DNA of 64,000 bases from Streptomyces erythrochromogenes. GTDB lineage: Bacteria; Actinomycetota; Actinomycetes; Streptomycetales; Streptomycetaceae. How positions within the stretch are numbered: the stretch's first letter is position 1; every line of letters starts with the position of its first letter. The notes below the pieces were generated by a model that did not search any database, was not told the DNA's origin, and worked only from the letters and a program-made list of their open reading frames with translations. The position numbers were made by a program, and so were the translations under genes. Below, in pieces: positions 9,743 to 60,761 of the stretch. The stretch is from positions 6,193,501-6,257,500 of the forward strand of contig NZ_CP108036.1 in assembly GCF_036170895.1 (NCBI RefSeq), given 5' to 3'.

Positions 9743-11011
9743 TCAGAGTGCCTGCGCGGCGGGCTTGACCATGCCGCGCACTGTGCGCGACTTCACAAAC
9801 TCGCCCATGGCCGTCATCTCCCACTCGCCGGAGAACTGACGGATCAGCTTGGCCATCATCACGCCCGTCTGCGGCTCGGCGCTGGTGAGGTCGAAGCGCA
9901 CCAGCTCCTCGCCGCTGGCCGCGTCGATCAGGCGGCAGTAGGCCTTGGCCACGTCGGTGAACTTCTGGCCGGAGAAGGAGTTGACCGTGAAGACCAGGCC
10001 CGTTGCGTCGGCGGGGAGCCGGCCGAGGTCCACGACGATCACCTCGTCGTCGCCCGCGCCCTCACCGGTGAGGTTGTCCCCGGAGTGCTTGATGGCGCCG
10101 TTGAGAATGGACAGCTTGCCGAAGTAGCAGCTGTCGATGTGGTTGCGCTGCGGGCCGTACGCGATGACGGACGCGTCGAGGTCGATGTCCCGGCCGCGGA
10201 AGGCGGGCTCCCAGCCCAGGCCCATCTTGACCTGGGAGAGCAGCGGGCGGCCGCCCTTGACCAGGGAGACGGTCTGGTTCTTCTGGAGGCTGACCCGGCC
10301 CTTGTCCAGGTTGATCTTCCCGGTGGCGGGCGGGGCGGCCGGGGGTGCGGCGGGCGCGGGAGCGGGGGCCGGGGTGACCGGGGCGGGGGTGCCGGCGCCG
10401 GCGGTGAGCCAGGGGGAGGGCTGGTGGGTCGTCGGCGGGGCGGGCGGGGCGGTGGGTGCCACGGGCGCGGCAGGTGCGGGCGGGGCGACGGCGGCCGCGG
10501 GAGCCGGTTCCTCGTCCACGCTGACCCCGAAGTCGGTGGCGATGCCGGCCAGGCCGTTCGCGTACCCCTGGCCGACCGCGCGGACCTTCCACACGCCACC
10601 GCGCTGGTAGATCTCGACGACGACGAGCGCCGTCTCGGTGGCCAGCTGCGGCGGGGTGAACGAGGCGATCACCGCGCCGCCGTCGGCATTGCGCACCGTG
10701 GCGGTGGGCTCGATGCCCTGGAAGGACTGCCCGGCGGCGTCGGGGCTGGCCGTGACCACGATCCGCTCGATGCCCGGGGGCACCGCGGAGGTGTCCACGG
10801 TGACCGAGTCCGGCGCCGCGCCCCCGCCGGACCGGTAGGTGACACCGGGCCCGGAGGGCTGGTTGAAGAAGATGAAGTCGGCGTCGGAGCGCACCTTGCC
10901 GTCCGCCGTGAGGAGCAGGGCGGACACGTCGAGCCGCACCGGCGCAGCCACGTCGACCGTCACGCGGACGGCATTGAGCGGCAGGTTGGATCCAGGGGTC
11001 ATAGCGGTCAT
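9743..11011 (-). CDS. Double-TerD-domain stress/tellurium-resistance family protein
   Basis: About 422 residues with two TerD-like domains. Domain 1 (about 1-165) runs from the start through VVVEIYQRGGVWKVRAVGQGYANGLAGIATDFG. A Pro/Ala-rich linker (about 166-235) follows. Domain 2 (about 236-422) has the classical features: VSLQKNQTVSLVK, VKMGLGWEP, RDIDLDAS, HSGDNLTGEGAGDDE (Ca2+ site) and VFTVNSFSGQKFTDV. TerD proteins are cytosolic Ca2+-binding proteins tied to tellurite, phage and envelope stress. The start is either ATG 11011 or 11002; neither has a good ribosome site, so the mRNA may be nearly leaderless. No other ter gene adjoins it. Confidence 0.85.
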   Translation of the reverse strand: MTAMTPGSNLPLNAVRVTVDVAAPVRLDVSALLLTADGKVRSDADFIFFNQPSGPGVTYRSGGGAAPDSVTVDTSAVPPGIERIVVTASPDAAGQSFQGIEPTATVRNADGGAVIASFTPPQLATETALVVVEIYQRGGVWKVRAVGQGYANGLAGIATDFGVSVDEEPAPAAAVAPPAPAAPVAPTAPPAPPTTHQPSPWLTAGAGTPAPVTPAPAPAPAAPPAAPPATGKINLDKGRVSLQKNQTVSLVKGGRPLLSQVKMGLGWEPAFRGRDIDLDASVIAYGPQRNHIDSCYFGKLSILNGAIKHSGDNLTGEGAGDDEVIVVDLGRLPADATGLVFTVNSFSGQKFTDVAKAYCRLIDAASGEELVRFDLTSAEPQTGVMMAKLIRQFSGEWEMTAMGEFVKSRTVRGMVKPAAQAL

Positions 11012-11046
11012 GCCCGGAGAACGAGCGGAGGTGCTTTGCCGTTCCC

Positions 11047-11286
11047 TTACCCTCGCGGGATATTTCCGCCCCGGTTGCGGGGGTGGTTCTTCGCGGTCCG
11101 CTCGTTGCCGAACTTGTAGGAGCCGGTCCACCGGGCCATCACGAGCTGCGGATCACCGGCCTCCACTTCGGTCAGGAACGCGGCGGCGCGGTCCCCGCGC
11201 AGGGTGGCCGCGGTGCGGCCCAGGTGGGTGATGACGACGCAACCGTCGCGCCGTACGTCGTACGTGAATCCGTGTGGTCTCGGCAT
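11047..11286 (-). CDS. Small conserved hypothetical protein
   Basis: 79 residues, starting MPRPHGFTYDVRRDGCVVITHLGRTAATLRG and followed by AAAFLTEVEAGDPQLVMARWTGSYKFGNERTAKNHPRNRG. The N-terminal half suggests two beta strands and a helix. The C-terminus is basic. The last stretch (YKFGNERTAKNHPRNRG) looks suited to nucleic-acid contact, but that is a guess. It ends 36 bases before the TerD gene start, so co-transcription is possible. Confidence 0.65.
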   Translation of the reverse strand: MPRPHGFTYDVRRDGCVVITHLGRTAATLRGDRAAAFLTEVEAGDPQLVMARWTGSYKFGNERTAKNHPRNRGGNIPRG

Positions 11287-47870: not shown

Positions 47871-48842
47871 TCATTCCCCGGCCGGTGCCACGTCCCGCAG
47901 CAGCTGCGTGAAGGCCGCCTCGTCGACGACCGGGGTGCCGAAGGCCTTCGCCTTGACCGTCTTCGAGGTCGCCGAGTCCGGGTCGTTCGTCACCAGGAGG
48001 CTGGTGAGCCGCGACACGCTCGTCGCGACGTGCAGGCCCGCCTCGATCGCCCGGTCCTCCAGCAGCTCCCGCTCCACCGAGGTGTCGCCGGAGAAGGCGA
48101 TCCGCATGCCCTGCTTCAGCGGCTCACCGTCCTCGAAGCGCCCCGGATTGGGGTGCGGGCACGGCGGACGCTTGCGCGAGGGCCGCCAGCTGCTGCCCCG
48201 GTACGACGCCTGGTGGCCCACGCGCGGAGTGGCCGCCGAGTCCGACCACTCCGTCAGCGGCCGGCATTCCAGCAGGGGCAGCCGTACGCCGCCCTGCGCC
48301 GCGGCGTGCAGCGACGGACGGAAGGCCTCCGCGAGCACCCGGGCGTCGTCGAGCGCGTGGTGGGCGCGCTGCTGGACCACACCGAAGTGCGCGGCGAGCG
48401 ACTCCAGCTTGTGGTTGGGCAGCGGGAGGTTCAGCTCCTTCGACAGGGCGATGGTGCACAGCCGCTGACGGACCGGCGCGGTCGTCTCGGCGCGCGCGTA
48501 CTCCCGGGCGATCATCTGCCAGTCGAAGATGGCGTTGTGCGCGACCAGCACGCGGTCCGCGAGCCTGCCGGCGAACTCCTCGGCGATGTCCTTGAAGAGC
48601 GGTGCGCCTTCGAGCACGTCACTCGTCAGACCGTGGATCCACACCGGTCCCGGGTCCCGCTGCGGGTTGACCAGGCTGTACCAGTGGTCCTCCACGTTGC
48701 CCTGTGCGTCCAGCCGGTAGACGGCGGCGGAGACTATCCGGTCGTCGCGAGCGAGCCCGGTGGTCTCCACGTCGACGACCGCGTACCCCTGTGGGTACGC
48801 GGTCGGCCACGTCGTCTCTGCGGTCGTACGGTCGTCGAGCAT
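47871..48842 (-). CDS. DEDDh 3'-5' exonuclease with C-terminal BRCT-like domain
   Basis: 323 residues. The exonuclease domain (about 18-185) has ExoI AVVDVETTGLARDDRI, ExoII LVAHNAIFDWQMIARE and ExoIII HHALDDARVLAEAF with catalytic His, as in DnaQ/epsilon proteins. The C-terminal 90 residues (QGMRIAFSGDTSVERELLEDRAIEAGLHVATSVSRLTSLLVTNDP) resemble a BRCT domain. In between is a basic WRPSRKRPPCPHPNPGRF linker. It likely acts in DNA repair or nucleotide turnover. The start is ATG 48842. The RING-TerD gene ends 48 bases upstream on the same strand. Confidence 0.9.
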   Translation of the reverse strand: MLDDRTTAETTWPTAYPQGYAVVDVETTGLARDDRIVSAAVYRLDAQGNVEDHWYSLVNPQRDPGPVWIHGLTSDVLEGAPLFKDIAEEFAGRLADRVLVAHNAIFDWQMIAREYARAETTAPVRQRLCTIALSKELNLPLPNHKLESLAAHFGVVQQRAHHALDDARVLAEAFRPSLHAAAQGGVRLPLLECRPLTEWSDSAATPRVGHQASYRGSSWRPSRKRPPCPHPNPGRFEDGEPLKQGMRIAFSGDTSVERELLEDRAIEAGLHVATSVSRLTSLLVTNDPDSATSKTVKAKAFGTPVVDEAAFTQLLRDVAPAGE

Positions 48843-48890
48843 GGTCACAGAGGATATCGGCACGGACTGACACCGCGGCCCCACCCTCGG

Positions 48891-51488
48891 TCAGCCCAGC
48901 GCGGAGACCAGGTCCCCGGCGGCCAGCTGTTCGAGCCCGCAGCCGTCAACGGGCCCCGGCAGCAGCCGGTATACGGACCCCCGCGCACCGGCCGGCGCCA
49001 CGTCGCCGTCCACCAGCGCGAGCAGCGCCGACCTCCCCGAGGCGGCCGCGCCCGCGAGGGCCTCCACGTCCGGCGACGGCAGCACGGAGTCCGGATCCTC
49101 CAGCCCGAGCAGCCGCCCGGCGAAGGCCGCGGTGTCCTCGTCCGCCCGGCGCCGGTAGGTCCACAGCTCGTCGGGGTCGCTGGGCCGGGGCGTGCGGCGC
49201 AGCACGACGACCTCTGCGCAGCGCGCCGCCGCGTGCCAGCCCGCCAGCTCCCACAGGGTGGTGCGGCCGGTGGAGAAGTACTGGAAGAGGTCGCGGCCGA
49301 TCCGGGCCAGGTCGTCCTGGTGCGCGTGCACGCTGTGGTAGCCCTCGTCGTCGGGCAGGTGCACGTCGGTCCACAGGAAGCCGCGCCGCTCCAGGTCGAC
49401 GAGCAGCGGCACGTGGATCCGCGAGTTGCCGACCAGGTCGTAGCGCTGCCGCACGGTCCGCGGGTCGTAGCGCGCGGTGCGCCCGGAGCGGCTCGGCAGC
49501 GACATGAAGCCGGCGAAGGCGTCGGGCAGCAGCTCGAAGGGGATGTTGTTGTAGCTGAAGACGACCGGCATGGCGAAGCGGACGCCGGTGTCGGCGAGGG
49601 CGTCGAGGTCGATGTCCACGTACTCGCTCGCCCCGGCGGGCGCGGGGGCGGAGGTGAGGTCGCCGGAGTGGACCACGGCCCGTCCGCCGTAGACGAGGTT
49701 GGTGTAGTCGCACAGGCCCGCGTAGTTCCAGTCGGAGTCGAACAGCACCACCGACAGGTCGAGATCCACCGTCTTCTTCGGCGGCTCCATCCAGTGCAGG
49801 AACATCCGCAGCACCTCGCCGTCGGGCAGCGCCTGGAAACTGCCCTTGGGTACGGTGACCAGGGCCTTGGCGGCCGCCCGCTCGGCCGAGGGGACGTGCA
49901 GGTGGGCCAGGCGGGAGTCGAGGACCGCCACGTCGTACGGCTCGGCCGCGGACAGCCGGCGCAGCAGCTCCCGCTCGAACAGGCCGGCCACCGCAACTGT
50001 CACGGGCTCGGCGAGCGGCGCCCGGGTGTCGTCCACGGTGTAGGAGTGCGCGACCTGGCCGCGCGGGAAGAACACCCGCCGGGTACCGGGCTGATGGCGG
50101 ATCCGCAGCCGTCCCAGCGCGGACAGCACCGGCCCCGGCCCCGCCTTCGGCAGCCGCTCCGCCAGCACCGCCGCCACCTGCTCGGGCAGGGCGTCGGCCG
50201 CGTACCGGCGCAGCAGGTGGTCGAGGCGCCGTACGAGCTCCCCGGGCCGCTCCGCGAGGACGGCGAGGGCGAGGTCCGGGTCCGCCCCGCGCAGGGCCTC
50301 CTCCGCGCGGCCCGTCCAGGTGGCGGCCCTGATGCGGGAGCCGTCGACCCGTACGGCCTGCGGGTGTCGGGCGGCGGTGGCCAGCAGGGCCTCGCCCAGC
50401 GCGGTGCCCCGGACGTCGGTCTCGCGCAGCACGGCGAAGGCCAGGGAGGCCCGCGGGTGGCGCCCGTACTGCTCGAAGGGGTGCAGGACCTCGGCGGCCC
50501 GCTTCCACGGGTCGGGGTGGCGCAGGACGTCCTCGACGAGCAGGGCGGGGTCCAGTGCGTCGAGCAGGGCGAGCAGTTCGCGGCGCAGCGGGCGCGGCAG
50601 GGACCGCATCCGGGGCGGCGACAGCAGGTCGGCCTCGCCGCCGGACCAGACGGCCAGGAGCCGCAGGACGTCGGTGGCGGTGGTCAGCCGGTCGGGGAGC
50701 AGGGCCCGTACGGCCTCCCGGGTGCGGCGCTCGCGCAGCAGGGTGCCGAGCACCATGGCCTTGGTCTCCCGTACCGGGATGTCGTCCGGCAGCCAGTCGA
50801 GGCCGGCCGGCGCGGCGGCGAGCAGCACCCGCGCCTCCTCGGTGTCCTGGGCCGACAGCGGGGTCCGGCGGGCGAGCAGCCGGCCGAGGGCGGTGACGGA
50901 GTCGGCGGCGCGGTCGGTGCCCAGGCCCAGCAGCCGCAGCGGGCCCGCGCTTTCGCCGGGCGCGGGCCGACCGGGCCGCTCGGCGGCCGGGTCCAGGAAG
51001 GGGTCCGCGAGGTCGATCCGGCGGTGGCAGATCGGGCAGCCCGTGTAGACGGCGCCGTCCCAGCAGGTCCGGCAGACCAGGTGGGCGCAGGGGGAGACGG
51101 GGTGGACGCTGCCGACGGTCGCGCACAGCACGCACGGCTGGGCGGGCCACTGCAGGAGCAGGGCGAAGACCCGGTCGAGCCACAGGGCGACGGTGTCGTC
51201 GGGCACGGAGGCCGGGAACGTGCGGAACAGCGGCATGTGGGTGCGGTCCGCGCCCAGCAGGACGTCGATGTCGCGGACGAGCGAGGTGCCGGCGTCGGCG
51301 AGCCCGGCGGGGCCGAGCCAGGCGAGTGCGGAGCGCAGCGGCGCCGTCAGGGCGAAGCCCCGGTCGAGGAGTTCGGCTTCGAGGGCGGTCAGGCCCTCGG
51401 CCGTGGACGGATCGCCGGGGCGCGGCCCGGCCTGGTCGACGTACACGGTGTGGAGACGGCGCAGCAGGACGGTCGACAGCTCGGGCAA
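48891..51488 (-). CDS. Large RING-finger protein with TerD-like C-terminal region (MXAN_6230/SCO0854 type)
   Basis: 865 residues from a TTG at 51488, with GGAGGA 9-10 bases upstream. Residues 119-154 hold C119-x2-C122-x11-C134-x-H136-x2-C139-x2-C142-x8-C151-x2-C154, an exact C3HC4 RING pattern. About 190-460 is a helical-repeat-like region. About 540-700 resembles TerD: VTVPKGS ... MFLHWMEPP, VDLDLSVVLFD (575-584), VVHSGDLTSAP and VDIDLDAL, matching the order of motifs in the TerD protein at 9743-11011. The last 160 residues are unassigned. RING domains in eukaryotes are ubiquitin ligases; the bacterial role is unknown. Confidence 0.85.
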   Translation of the reverse strand: MPELSTVLLRRLHTVYVDQAGPRPGDPSTAEGLTALEAELLDRGFALTAPLRSALAWLGPAGLADAGTSLVRDIDVLLGADRTHMPLFRTFPASVPDDTVALWLDRVFALLLQWPAQPCVLCATVGSVHPVSPCAHLVCRTCWDGAVYTGCPICHRRIDLADPFLDPAAERPGRPAPGESAGPLRLLGLGTDRAADSVTALGRLLARRTPLSAQDTEEARVLLAAAPAGLDWLPDDIPVRETKAMVLGTLLRERRTREAVRALLPDRLTTATDVLRLLAVWSGGEADLLSPPRMRSLPRPLRRELLALLDALDPALLVEDVLRHPDPWKRAAEVLHPFEQYGRHPRASLAFAVLRETDVRGTALGEALLATAARHPQAVRVDGSRIRAATWTGRAEEALRGADPDLALAVLAERPGELVRRLDHLLRRYAADALPEQVAAVLAERLPKAGPGPVLSALGRLRIRHQPGTRRVFFPRGQVAHSYTVDDTRAPLAEPVTVAVAGLFERELLRRLSAAEPYDVAVLDSRLAHLHVPSAERAAAKALVTVPKGSFQALPDGEVLRMFLHWMEPPKKTVDLDLSVVLFDSDWNYAGLCDYTNLVYGGRAVVHSGDLTSAPAPAGASEYVDIDLDALADTGVRFAMPVVFSYNNIPFELLPDAFAGFMSLPSRSGRTARYDPRTVRQRYDLVGNSRIHVPLLVDLERRGFLWTDVHLPDDEGYHSVHAHQDDLARIGRDLFQYFSTGRTTLWELAGWHAAARCAEVVVLRRTPRPSDPDELWTYRRRADEDTAAFAGRLLGLEDPDSVLPSPDVEALAGAAASGRSALLALVDGDVAPAGARGSVYRLLPGPVDGCGLEQLAAGDLVSALG

Positions 51489-51640
51489 AGGGGGGAGTCC
51501 TCCGGGACCGGGGAGAGGGATGGGGCGGGGGCGGAGAGGGGACGCGCTGCGTGGTCATCGGAGAGGTGAGAAGGAAGCACGTCGCGGAGCCGCCCCCGCG
51601 CAGCAGATACAACCACGGCCGGGCCGAGGCGCAAACCGAT

Positions 51641-56633: not shown

Positions 56634-59600
56634 TCAGGTGTCGTACGCCGTGAGCCGCTCCGGCGGGAATCGTTCCGTGCCGGTGAGCCGGGTGCCACCC
56701 GACGCGACGACCCGCAGGCCCGACAGGTCGGCCAGCGGCCCGATGTCGATGACGGGGAGGCAGTCGGTCAGGTTCACCTGTACCAGGTCGGGCAGTTCAC
56801 GCAGCGGTTCGAGCGAGCCGACCAGCTCGCAGGAACCCAGGTAGAGCTCCTTCAGGCCCTGGTGCTTCACCAGGCTGCGCGGGTCCAGCTCCGGCTGGGC
56901 CAGGAGCTGCAGGACGGTCAGCGGCGGCGGAACCGGCAGGACCGCCAGACTGCGCGCCTGCTGGGTGCCGGAGACGGTCAGCCAGGAGAGGTCCGGCCAC
57001 CGTTCCAGCCCGTCCAGGCTCACCTCCGCCGCCCGCTGGTAGAGCCCGAAGCCGGTCAGGGCACCGGCCACCGGCAGGTCGGCCACCGAACGAGTGCCGA
57101 GGCGCAGGTCCAGTCCCAGGTGCCGCAGCCCGCCCAGATCGGCCAGCGGCCGCAGGTCCGCCTCGTCGAGCCGGTACAGGTACAAGGTCTCCAGTGAGAG
57201 GTCGCCCAACCCGTCGAGGCGTACGTCGCGGCACTGGTCCAAGCCGACCAGTCGCAGATCGGCCAGCGCGGACAGGGCCCCGAGGTCGGCGAGCCGGTGG
57301 TTGAGGCTGAAGAAGACCCGTTCCAGGTCCCGCAGGCTCATCAGCTCCGGGGGGACGCCGTAGTCGCCCTCCAGCCGGATGCGCCGGTGAGGGAGCCTGT
57401 GGAGCTGTGCGAGCTGCTCCCGAGTGTGGACGGGGAGGAAGGCGTCCCCCAGCGGGGCCCCGCCCAGTACCTCGTCCACGTAGAGGGCCGTGTCGAAGCG
57501 GCCCCACGAAGCAGCCAGTTCGTGGCAGACGGAGAACCGCGTGTCCGACCGTGCTGCGGCCAGCACGCGGAGGGCCCGGAGGCCGCCGATCAGTGCGGCC
57601 GTACGGACGGCCGCCGCCGCCTCGGCCACCGGCAGCCCCGCCGGGGCCGGCAGCAGCTCCAGGACCAGCTCGCCGGCCTTGGCCAGTTCGGCGGCCTGAT
57701 CCATGGTCCGCGGCGGCAGCAGTTCCGCCGTGCGGGACTGGATGTCGGAGCGGATCGCCGGGTCGAGTTCCGGGGCGTGTTCCAGGCTCGCAGCGGCGAG
57801 GAGGACCAGGCGGTTGCGGGCGCTCTTGACCTTGTCCGCGCGCTTCAGCAGGCCCCGCAGGATGCGGGTGCGTTCATCCGGGCGTGCGTGGCCCACTGCC
57901 ATGCGGACCACGTCGTCCCAGGTGTCGTCGTGGGCGTTCCTCACCAGCACGCCGAAGTCCCGCGATTCCACCGCGGCCTTAGCGCCCAGGTAGTCCTGGA
58001 AGGTGCGGTGGACGAAGACGACAGAGCCCGGCACCGGCTCCAGGAGCAGCCCGCTGCGGATCAGCAGGTGGGTGAAGACCTGCTCCGCGCCGCCCTGCGC
58101 GGCAACCTGCGGCATCGAGTCCAGCCACTCGCCCACCATCTCGACGGCCTCGCCCCGGTCCGCCTCCACCTGGCCGTTCCTGATCAGCCAGTACGCGAAC
58201 CGCTGGAGCAGCAGGACCTGTTCGTCGCGGGTGAGGTAGACGCCCTCGACCCCGCTGATCTCCCGTTCCGTGTCCCGCCGGACCAGCAGCATGTCCAGGG
58301 CGGCGTCGTACAGCTCCTTGCGCGCCCGGGGCAGGTGCATCCGCCGGTCCCGGTTCAGCGCGCAGAGCAGTGCGCACATCAGGGGGTTGGTGGCGAGCCG
58401 CGCCAGGTCGCGGCGGGCCGACACCGCCTCCAGTAGCGAGGCCTCGTACGCGTCCAGGTCCTCGCCGGGGCATTCGGCGCGCGCCGCCCGGTGCCAGTGC
58501 GAGACGAACGCGCGGATGTCGTCCAACTCCATCGGCAGCAGCGAGTGCGGCGTGAAGCCCTGCCCCGCCAGCCAGTCCTCCGGCACGGCCGACGGCCGGG
58601 TCGTCACCACGTACCGCGCCTTCGGGAACGCGGCGATCAGCGACCGCAGCCAGACTTCCGTGCGGGTGCGCAGCCGCTGCGGGACCTCGTCCACCCCGTC
58701 CACCAGCACCAGCGCCCGGCCGTTCAGCATCAGGTCCTCGGCCCAGCCGGCGGGAGCCGACAGGGGTACGCCCGAGGCGCGCAGGAACTCCTCCGGCAGC
58801 GGCAGGCTCTCTGCGGACGTGAAGGCCCGCAGCCGCAGGACGAACGGCACGCACGTGCCCCACGGCCCCTCCGCCTGCCGGGCCGCGTTCAGCGCCAGCC
58901 ACTGCATCAGCGTGCTCTTGCCTGAGCCGGCCGGGCCGCGCAGCAGCACCCGGTCCGCCGAGCCCAGGGCGTGCTCCGCCCTGACCGGGCTCTGGTGCAT
59001 GCCCGGCTCGCCCGGCATCAGCTGCTGCTCGCCGCTCACCGTGAGGCTGATGTAGGCGAGGTCCAGCGGCCACTCCTCCCGCGCCCGGCCGGTGGTCAGC
59101 CCGAACAGCTGCAGGCGGCCGTGGGCCTGCGCCACGTACTGCGCGTACTTCTGCTCGAAGCGGTGGGCCTCCGACGCAGCCGTCGCGGCGAGCCGCGCCG
59201 CCATCCGGTCCACGTGCCGCTCCAGTCGGCCCGTCCGCCGGACCAGTTCCACGTCCGTCCGGGCGCCGAAGCCCGGCAGGGTCGTCAGGTACTCCACGGT
59301 GTGCTCGCAGCACAGCCGGACCAGCCGCCCGTACAGGGCCTCGGCCGCCTCGCCCAGGCCGGGCGGGGCCGGCGGCAGTGTCGCCGCCAGGGTCGCCGGG
59401 TCCAGGTCCGCCGCGAAAAGGGCCTCCGCGTCCAGCGGGCCCAGCGCGGCGAAGGCGTCGCCGGCCGCGGCCACCGCCGCCAGGCGCTCGTGTTCCGGGA
59501 GGCGGGCGGTGGCCTCGTCCATGCGGGCCGCGAGGGTCTCCGTCAGCCGGCGGATCTCCGGCTCGCCCAGCTCCGCGGTCGTTCGGCGCCACCTCGGCAC

Positions 59601-59717
59601 CGGGCGGGCCGGGTCCGCCGTCAGGCCCGCGCCGGGGGCCCGGGACAGAGCGGACCTGATCAGGGCGCTCGCCGCCGTCCCCGCCACCCGTAAGAGAACC
59701 GTCTCGAATCCCGTCAT
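56634..59717 (-). CDS. NACHT NTPase with C-terminal leucine-rich repeats (NLR-like)
   Basis: 1027 residues, cytosolic, STAND-type. Residues about 1-215 are a helical N-terminal domain (start MTGFETVLLRVAGTAASALI). The NACHT domain has Walker A LLRGPAGSGKSTLMQW (261-269), Walker B ALVLVDGVDEVP (336-345), sensor YVVTTRPS (369-376) and the winged-helix end VFVHRTFQDYLGAKA (568-580). Residues about 780-1027 contain irregular leucine-rich repeats (LRLVGLDQC, LETLYLYRLDEADLRPLADLGGLRHLGLDL, LKELYLGSC, DLVQVNLTDC). Related bacterial NACHT proteins give phage defence. GGAGGG precedes the ATG at 59717. No nuclease or other effector is visible beside it. Confidence 0.9.
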   Translation of the reverse strand: MTGFETVLLRVAGTAASALIRSALSRAPGAGLTADPARPVPRWRRTTAELGEPEIRRLTETLAARMDEATARLPEHERLAAVAAAGDAFAALGPLDAEALFAADLDPATLAATLPPAPPGLGEAAEALYGRLVRLCCEHTVEYLTTLPGFGARTDVELVRRTGRLERHVDRMAARLAATAASEAHRFEQKYAQYVAQAHGRLQLFGLTTGRAREEWPLDLAYISLTVSGEQQLMPGEPGMHQSPVRAEHALGSADRVLLRGPAGSGKSTLMQWLALNAARQAEGPWGTCVPFVLRLRAFTSAESLPLPEEFLRASGVPLSAPAGWAEDLMLNGRALVLVDGVDEVPQRLRTRTEVWLRSLIAAFPKARYVVTTRPSAVPEDWLAGQGFTPHSLLPMELDDIRAFVSHWHRAARAECPGEDLDAYEASLLEAVSARRDLARLATNPLMCALLCALNRDRRMHLPRARKELYDAALDMLLVRRDTEREISGVEGVYLTRDEQVLLLQRFAYWLIRNGQVEADRGEAVEMVGEWLDSMPQVAAQGGAEQVFTHLLIRSGLLLEPVPGSVVFVHRTFQDYLGAKAAVESRDFGVLVRNAHDDTWDDVVRMAVGHARPDERTRILRGLLKRADKVKSARNRLVLLAAASLEHAPELDPAIRSDIQSRTAELLPPRTMDQAAELAKAGELVLELLPAPAGLPVAEAAAAVRTAALIGGLRALRVLAAARSDTRFSVCHELAASWGRFDTALYVDEVLGGAPLGDAFLPVHTREQLAQLHRLPHRRIRLEGDYGVPPELMSLRDLERVFFSLNHRLADLGALSALADLRLVGLDQCRDVRLDGLGDLSLETLYLYRLDEADLRPLADLGGLRHLGLDLRLGTRSVADLPVAGALTGFGLYQRAAEVSLDGLERWPDLSWLTVSGTQQARSLAVLPVPPPLTVLQLLAQPELDPRSLVKHQGLKELYLGSCELVGSLEPLRELPDLVQVNLTDCLPVIDIGPLADLSGLRVVASGGTRLTGTERFPPERLTAYDT

Positions 59718-59739
59718 TCCCCACCCTCCCCGAACCGAC

Positions 59740-59769
59740 GGTAACCTGGACGGATACCGATCGGTAACA
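59740..59769. promoter_or_regulatory. Palindrome and direct repeats between the NACHT and hydroxylase genes
   Basis: TACCGATCGGTA (59755-59766) is a perfect 12-bp palindrome. GGTAAC occurs twice as a direct repeat (59740-59745 and 59763-59768). The site is 23-52 bases upstream of the NACHT gene start and 42-71 bases upstream of the hydroxylase start, so it could control either. Confidence 0.5.
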
Positions 59770-59810
59770 ACCTCTAGCGGCACCCCCGGAGGCGCCTCTA
59801 TGGTGCGGAC

Positions 59811-60761
59811 ATGCCGAACCTGCCCGATGTCGTGCTGTGGTCCATACCCGCCTTCGTGCTGCTCACCGTCATCGAGCTGGTGAGCTACCGCCTCCATCCC
59901 GACGAGGACGCGGACGGCTACGAGACGAAGGACGCCGTCACCAGCATCAGCATGGGGCTCGGCAGCATCGGTTTCGACCTGCTCTGGAAGATCCCGGTGG
60001 TCGCGGTCTTCACCGCCGTCTACGAACTCACCCCGCTGCGGGTGCCGTTGCTGTGGTGGACCATCCCGCTGATGCTGCTCGCCCAGGACTTCCTCTACTA
60101 CTGGCAGCACCGCGGCCACCACGTGATCCGCATCCTGTGGGCCTGCCACGTGGTCCACCACAGCAGCCGCAAGTTCAACCTCACCACCGCCCTGCGCCAG
60201 CCCTGGACCAGCGCCACCACCTACTGGTTCTACCTGCCGATGGTGGCCGTCGGCGTGCACCCGGCCGTGATCCCGTTCTGCTACGGCATCAACCTGCTCT
60301 ACCAGTTCTGGGTCCACACCGAGCGCATCGGGAAGCTGCCCCGGGCCTACGAGTACGTCTTCAACACCCCGTCCCACCACCGCGTCCACCACGCGTCCCA
60401 GGGCGGCTACCTCGACCGCAACTACGGCGGCATCCTGATCATCTGGGACCGGATGTTCGGCTCCTGGGTGGGCGAGACGGACAGGCCCGTCTACGGGCTC
60501 ACCAAGAACATCAACACCTACAACCCGCTGCGCGTCGCCACCCACGAGTACGCCGCCATCGCCCGGGACGTGCGCGCCGCCCGGAGCTGGAGCGAGCGGG
60601 CCGGCCGGGTCTTCCGCGGCCCCGGCTGGCAGCCCGCGACCCCGGCCGCCCGGGCCGCCGCGCCTGCGACGCAGGCCGCCGCGCCCGCGACCCCGCCCGC
60701 CCGGGCCGCCGCGCCCGCCCCCGTCGCCGACCCGGCCGCCGTACAGGAGACCACCGCGTGA
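59811..60761 (+). CDS. Fatty acid hydroxylase superfamily protein resembling alkylglycerol monooxygenase
   Basis: 316 residues, membrane-bound di-iron enzyme. His clusters: DFLYYWQHRGHHVIRILWACHVVHHSS (HRGHH, HxxHHSS) and NTPSHHRVHHASQGGYLDRNYGG. Between them NLTTALRQ and INLLYQFWVHTERIG, and later ILIIWDRMFGSW, follow the order and wording I recall for animal alkylglycerol monooxygenase (TMEM195), more than sterol desaturases. Such enzymes oxidise ether lipids and release a fatty aldehyde. The C-terminal 35 residues are an Ala/Pro/Thr repeat. Its stop overlaps the lysoplasmalogenase start (GTGA). Confidence 0.85.
   Translation: MPNLPDVVLWSIPAFVLLTVIELVSYRLHPDEDADGYETKDAVTSISMGLGSIGFDLLWKIPVVAVFTAVYELTPLRVPLLWWTIPLMLLAQDFLYYWQHRGHHVIRILWACHVVHHSSRKFNLTTALRQPWTSATTYWFYLPMVAVGVHPAVIPFCYGINLLYQFWVHTERIGKLPRAYEYVFNTPSHHRVHHASQGGYLDRNYGGILIIWDRMFGSWVGETDRPVYGLTKNINTYNPLRVATHEYAAIARDVRAARSWSERAGRVFRGPGWQPATPAARAAAPATQAAAPATPPARAAAPAPVADPAAVQETTA
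60636..60716. repeat. In-frame 30/21/30-nt tandem repeat at the 3' end of the hydroxylase gene
   Basis: Units at 60636-60665, 60666-60686 (shortened) and 60687-60716 all begin GCGAC and end CCGCCGCGCC. They encode ATPAARAAAP, ATQAAAP and ATPPARAAAP, a disordered tail probably of variable length between strains. Confidence 0.8.

What the first reader, a model, noticed from the sequence alone, without database searches (positions are those of the whole stretch)
48891..51488. Bacterial C3HC4 RING finger fused to a TerD-like domain
Residues 119-154 satisfy the full eukaryotic RING spacing. Residues about 540-700 repeat the motif order of true TerD proteins (Lys-Gly start, Leu-x-Trp, DLDLS, HSGD), as can be compared with the TerD protein at 9743-11011 in the same window. 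A RING in a bacterium without ubiquitin, joined to a stress-linked Ca2+-binding fold and a long helical-repeat middle, suggests an uncharacterised modification or signalling system. The family is known only by placeholder names (MXAN_6230/SCO0854), as far as I recall.
Basis: partly seen in the sequence, partly recalled or inferred. Interest (0 to 1): 0.7.

Follow-up and report, generated by a model that had tools for sequence, protein, structure and literature searches.

The report
RING-TerD Ro-like protein with partner RNA
A Streptomyces protein noted for its eukaryote-like RING finger looks like a distant relative of the RNA-binding Ro60 protein carrying a TerD domain, and its gene sits next to a small structured RNA that also accompanies relatives of the gene in other bacteria and in phages.

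The parts
48891..51488 (-). RING / Ro-like helical / TerD-like protein gene, 865 aa, NF041916
51027..51134 (-). C3HC4 RING, residues 119-154
49950..50927 (-). Ro60/TROVE-like helical region, about residues 188-513
   Evidence: structure only; profile comparison negative
49299..49823 (-). TerD-like domain, residues 556-730
51525..51599 (-). 75-nt hairpin RNA element, 36 nt before the start codon: 10-bp outer stem (51599-51590 with 51534-51525), internal loop, 7-bp inner stem (51583-51577 with 51547-51541), loop start UUCCUUCU
47871..48884 (-). 3'-5' exonuclease (RNase_T) with C-terminal BRCT, immediate downstream neighbour; core gene, probably not a dedicated partner

Best explanation
The protein is the protein half of a ribonucleoprotein that works like Ro60 with its Y RNA. 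Shown by computation: a helical region resembling Ro60/TROVE, a TerD-like domain after it, a RING before it in one clade, and a conserved structured RNA (outer stem, internal loop, covarying inner stem, pyrimidine-rich loop start UUACUUC or UUCCUUCU) encoded next to the gene on the same strand in Streptomyces, Bacteroidota and phages. Inferred: the Ro-like region binds that RNA; the TerD-like domain (calcium binding in true TerD per the title of 2kxt, untested here) senses stress; the full RING of the Streptomyces clade is a zinc-stabilised interaction module. Most likely role: RNA, especially tRNA, quality control or repair during stress or phage conflict.
Confidence: 0.66

Rival explanations
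1. The RING is an E3-type module of an unknown bacterial protein-modification pathway, and the RNA merely regulates the gene.
For: All eight ligands kept in the 23-member full clade (P0012 shows W at ligand 1 in the alignment); by sequence closest to CBL, CBL-B and RNF146 RINGs.
Against: 95 of 118 aligned homologues lack zinc site I or the whole RING; no E1/E2/Ubl named in seven annotated neighbourhoods. Whole genomes were not searched for them.
Confidence: 0.12
2. The hairpin is a cis element only: terminator of the upstream TetR gene or leader regulating this gene (autoregulation by the protein would still be RNA binding).
For: In the window it lies between the TetR stop (51641) and the start codon, with a GC-rich outer stem.
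Against: Covarying inner stem and conserved loop start; downstream of the gene in 21 of 21 RING-less Streptomyces loci (12, 9), upstream in Bacteroidota and RING-full loci, tandem copies in Bacteroidota and phages; no T run after the window hairpin.
Confidence: 0.16
3. A Ter-type DNA-processing or defence operon with the adjacent exonuclease as effector.
For: 6-bp gap to the exonuclease ORF in the window; 17 of 32 Streptomyces RING loci have it adjacent, one partial.
Against: Exonuclease found in 57 of 61 Streptomyces genomes, not found in the held stretch at 15 of 32 RING and 21 of 21 RING-less loci; no PADLOC match.
Confidence: 0.06

Closest known systems
NCBIfam NF041916 (MXAN_6230/SCO0854 family RING domain-containing protein)
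   Same: Full-length member, 1115.8 bits
   Different: The model name states no function; 95 of the 118 homologues aligned have a half RING or none
Ro60 / Rsr (TROVE domain) with Y RNA
   Same: Helical region superposes on TROVE structures; a small structured RNA lies alongside the gene; rtcR cluster beside one homologue
   Different: No TROVE sequence match; a TerD-like domain follows the helical region; the RNA has no Rfam Y RNA match. The same genome has a separate TROVE gene
TerD (2kxt, 3ibz)
   Different: Not detected by Pfam TerD; part of a large protein; Ca2+ binding untested
phrog_33734 (phage family of unknown function)
   Same: All 22 members of alignment A1 match it
   Different: The phage members in A1 lack the RING

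Membership tests
NCBIfam NF041916 | Score above curated cut-off over full length | tested here: met
   1115.8 bits, residues 5-861
RING (C3HC4) | Eight ligands with canonical spacing | tested here: met
   loss in relatives goes by zinc site (1,2,5,6 lost, 3,4,7,8 kept)
RING (C3HC4) | Zinc-bound cross-brace structure | tested here: inconclusive
   Model blocks over residues 111-160 have pLDDT 94-96, but the RING was not folded or compared alone and zinc was not measured
RING E3 ligase | E2 and ubiquitin-like partners | tested here: inconclusive
   None named in seven annotated neighbourhoods; genomes not searched
TerD | TerD fold | tested here: met
TerD (Pfam PF02342) | Profile score above gathering cut-off | tested here: not met
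   Not listed at E<=1; hence called TerD-like
Ro60/TROVE | Helical-repeat region superposing on TROVE structures | tested here: met
Ro60/TROVE | Closed ring with central hole that binds RNA | not tested
   Ring closure was not examined
Ro60/TROVE (Pfam PF05731) | Sequence profile match | tested here: not met
   hence called Ro-like, not a TROVE member
Ro60/TROVE | C-terminal vWA domain | not tested
   Residues 740-865 were not folded alone; full-length alignments run to 864-865
Y RNA | Match to a described Y RNA family | tested here: not met
   No Rfam Y RNA match in 24 loci and the window stretch
Y RNA | Binding to the Ro protein | not testable with these tools
   needs experiment
Known anti-phage systems (PADLOC) | Profile match | tested here: not met
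   0 families

The most novel reading that the evidence does not exclude
A second, unrecognised Ro-type ribonucleoprotein family, spread over Actinomycetota, Bacteroidota, Bacillota, Pseudomonadota and many phages, in which a TerD-like sensor follows a Ro-like region, a dedicated class of hairpin or tRNA-like RNA is encoded beside the gene (often in tandem), and a RING is present in one clade, linking RNA surveillance to a protein target.
Probability: 0.5. Interest if true: 0.88.

Novelty: new variant of a known kind. Interest (0 to 1): 0.8.

Why it matters
It would give placeholder families (MXAN_6230/SCO0854, phrog_33734) a testable biochemical role, add a conserved RNA class for which the Rfam scans made here found no family, tie TerD-like domains to RNA, and show a RING gained or lost one zinc site at a time on a non-ubiquitin scaffold. 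It also suggests what some large phages with tRNA arrays use these genes for.

Tried and rejected
Exonuclease as dedicated partner: rejected, core gene and not near RING-less loci. One genome (G299) has a match to profile positions 651-793 only, beside its exonuclease, which suggests decay there. Sequence proof of TROVE homology by hhalign: negative. A first RNA pattern (GAA..ACC..GGTCAA) gave hits elsewhere that I took for chance and 0 of 80 in Bacteroidota, against 4 of 665 control windows; the motif was recast from upstream sequences. R1 found nothing in the window or the Streptomyces loci; R2 found 12 of 21 RING-less loci and no RING-full locus. Viral scans with single phage proteins gave 1, 0 and 0 loci, with A6 none.

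Literature: 0 papers for MXAN_6230 or SCO0854 and for TerD with RING finger, bacteria and tellurite. Listings seen; passages read in PMC7159879, PMC3710099, PMC7824862 and PMC7790460: PMC7824862 mentions a TROVE protein and TerD in jumbo phages separately; none of the passages describes this family. Burroughs 2011 (PMC5938088), a Ter-systems paper and a 2016 RNA-repair paper are not held, so an earlier description of the RING-TerD fusion there is possible. No literature search was made for the hairpin RNA itself.

Full report
Observation. ORF 48891-51488 is on the minus strand, 865 aa, a full member of NF041916. The RING is real at sequence level and the TerD-like region has a TerD fold, although Pfam TerD does not score it. 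AlphaFold2 model: pLDDT 93.1, pTM 0.90.

RING states. In an alignment of 118 proteins (window, 20 of the 120 relatives listed, 97 of the 120 listed) the ligands fall into three sets: 23 full (counting P0012, with W at ligand 1), 61 keeping ligands 3, 4, 7, 8 (zinc site II; the His sometimes Cys or Asp) with none of 1, 2, 5, 6, and 34 with none. Loss by whole zinc site is what a cross-brace RING predicts. On a midpoint-rooted FastTree of the rest of the protein (residue 176 on), the state needs 4 changes against a mean of 48.8 and a minimum of 42 in 200 label shuffles, and the full class is one clade with support 1.0. So the RING is clade-specific and the scaffold is what is conserved. All 22 members of a broader set, phage proteins included, match phrog_33734, function unknown.

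Distribution. 35 of 246 Streptomyces genomes exceed the NF041916 cut-off (in two the gene is split over contigs). By hand count of the same table about 65 more have a best E between 7e-92 and 9e-35; the 21 of these loci that I fetched with long flanks align with a RING-less relative (L107). In the phylum sample 3 of 296 exceed the cut-off and 14 have any match. tblastn finds 30 plasmid records and 11 phage records.

The RNA. Rfam found tRNA matches with long inserts just before the half-RING genes of Hymenobacter (L041 4741-4852, gene 4924) and Segatella (L042 4696-4818, gene 4921), not called by ARAGORN. A genome scan gave 80 Bacteroidota loci. Upstream of the gene they hold hairpins of the form AGGUC(C)AAG-stem-CUUACUUC ... 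stem-AAUUACCU: 71 pattern matches in 56 of 80, 0 antisense, 0 downstream (pattern read off some of these loci). From 55 dereplicated copies I aligned 52, leaving three out. The 7-bp inner helix is 94.5% paired against 70.0 shuffled, with 6 of 7 pairs changed on both sides and 103 such cells against 29.0, 0 of 500 shuffles; slid versions pair 27-46%. R1 then matched 110 times at E<=0.01 in the same 80 loci, all on the gene's strand and upstream, in 72 loci by hand count (R1 was trained on 52 of these copies). Long tRNA-like matches (over 100 nt) precede the gene in 5 of 17 of these loci scanned with Rfam.

Spread of the RNA. R1 on 63 of 78 phage loci (15 left out as near-duplicates): 13 matches at E<=5, 12 on the gene's strand, best E 0.005; Weasels2, two copies after the gene, E 0.011 and 0.1. 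R2 (52 matches from 32 loci chosen for their R1 matches, E<=0.5): 110 phage matches at E<=10, 107 on the gene's strand by hand count; of 29 at E<=0.01, 24 lie within 500 nt of the gene or overlap the end of its aligned stretch, while the 500-nt flanks on that strand are 5.1% of the searched strand-bases; several of these phages trained R2. R2 also matched 12 of 21 RING-less Streptomyces loci (E 0.13-5.7), all on the gene's strand and 21-69 nt after the last aligned codon, and single copies near the Niallia, Vibrio, LpeD, RpAliso and LR745208 genes at E 0.03-4.9, LpeD having trained it. R3 (61 matches from 36 chosen loci, E<=2) matched the other 9 of 21 RING-less loci, E 8e-7 to 4e-11 (their 12 relatives trained it), Variovorax after the gene (E 0.007), XacN1 three copies before it (best 0.0065), and 15 of 36 RING-full loci, E 0.012-9.6, all on the gene's strand and 48-338 nt upstream.

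The window. The unrestricted search did not list it at E<=10. A search of 311 bases with filters off gave 10.9 bits at 51583-51534 on the minus strand. The element spans 51599-51525: 10-bp outer stem, 7-bp inner stem, loop start UUCCUUCU. The motif GCNTCCTTCT occurs within 450 nt upstream in 35 of 36 RING-full loci (miss: L085), 0 antisense, 6 elsewhere in 1.25 Mb counted over both strands. The best inner stem is 7 of 7 paired in 31 of 35, with GC, AU and GU variants at several pairs, but it is the best of many offsets and had no shuffled control; an outer run of at least 10 is present in 29 of 35 against 11.3% of shuffles. The motif was read from these loci, so this count shows consistency; the R3 matches are the independent evidence.

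Neighbours. The exonuclease is core (57 of 61 genomes), adjacent in 17 of 32 Streptomyces RING loci (one partial) and 0 of 21 RING-less loci. Variovorax: half-RING gene divergent from three small genes and rtcR; Xanthomonas: rtcR divergent from a vWA gene that matches the TROVE query (E 3e-14), followed by rtcB and rtcA. Two phage homologues lie among tRNA genes, others have tRNAs within the stretch; ARAGORN found tRNA or tmRNA in 36 phage stretches, 0.44 per kb, without a baseline (the tally printed 64 records for 63 loci).

Mechanism and limits. I think the protein binds its adjacent RNA as Ro60 binds Y RNA (recalled), forming an RNA surveillance or repair particle with the TerD-like domain as sensor. 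Shown: folds, RNA conservation, co-location. Inferred: binding, sensing, repair. Y RNA, YrlA tRNA mimicry, TerD function and RtcR biology are from memory except where a call is cited.

Noticed in passing
L041 4741-4852; L042 4696-4818; L148, L149, L160, L169, L189 upstream of gene: tRNA-like RNAs whose Rfam tRNA match carries a long insert at the anticodon arm; in L041 and L042 the insert shares the GAAUUACC...GGUCAAC motif. They look like tRNA-mimic partner RNAs.
   Followed up: partly
window 56634-60545: NACHT protein with NNH1 domain, a possible defence gene near the finding.
   Followed up: no
window 9743-11131: Protein with two TerD matches; in three related genomes (G023, G107, G128) a TROVE match lies within about 4 kb of a TerD match.
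   Followed up: no
G000 C1 2607642-2607824: The window's own genome has a separate TROVE gene with a vWA-like stretch.
   Followed up: partly
L041 12919 onward: Mov34/MPN/PAD-1 (JAB) gene about 5.7 kb from the Hymenobacter homologue.
   Followed up: no
L044 1101-1219 and 2895-3116: An unusually long tRNA-Gln annotation and a permuted tmRNA upstream of the RpAliso homologue.
   Followed up: no
G299 C2 557592-558035: Partial match to the RING family profile beside the exonuclease, suggesting loss in some strains.
   Followed up: no
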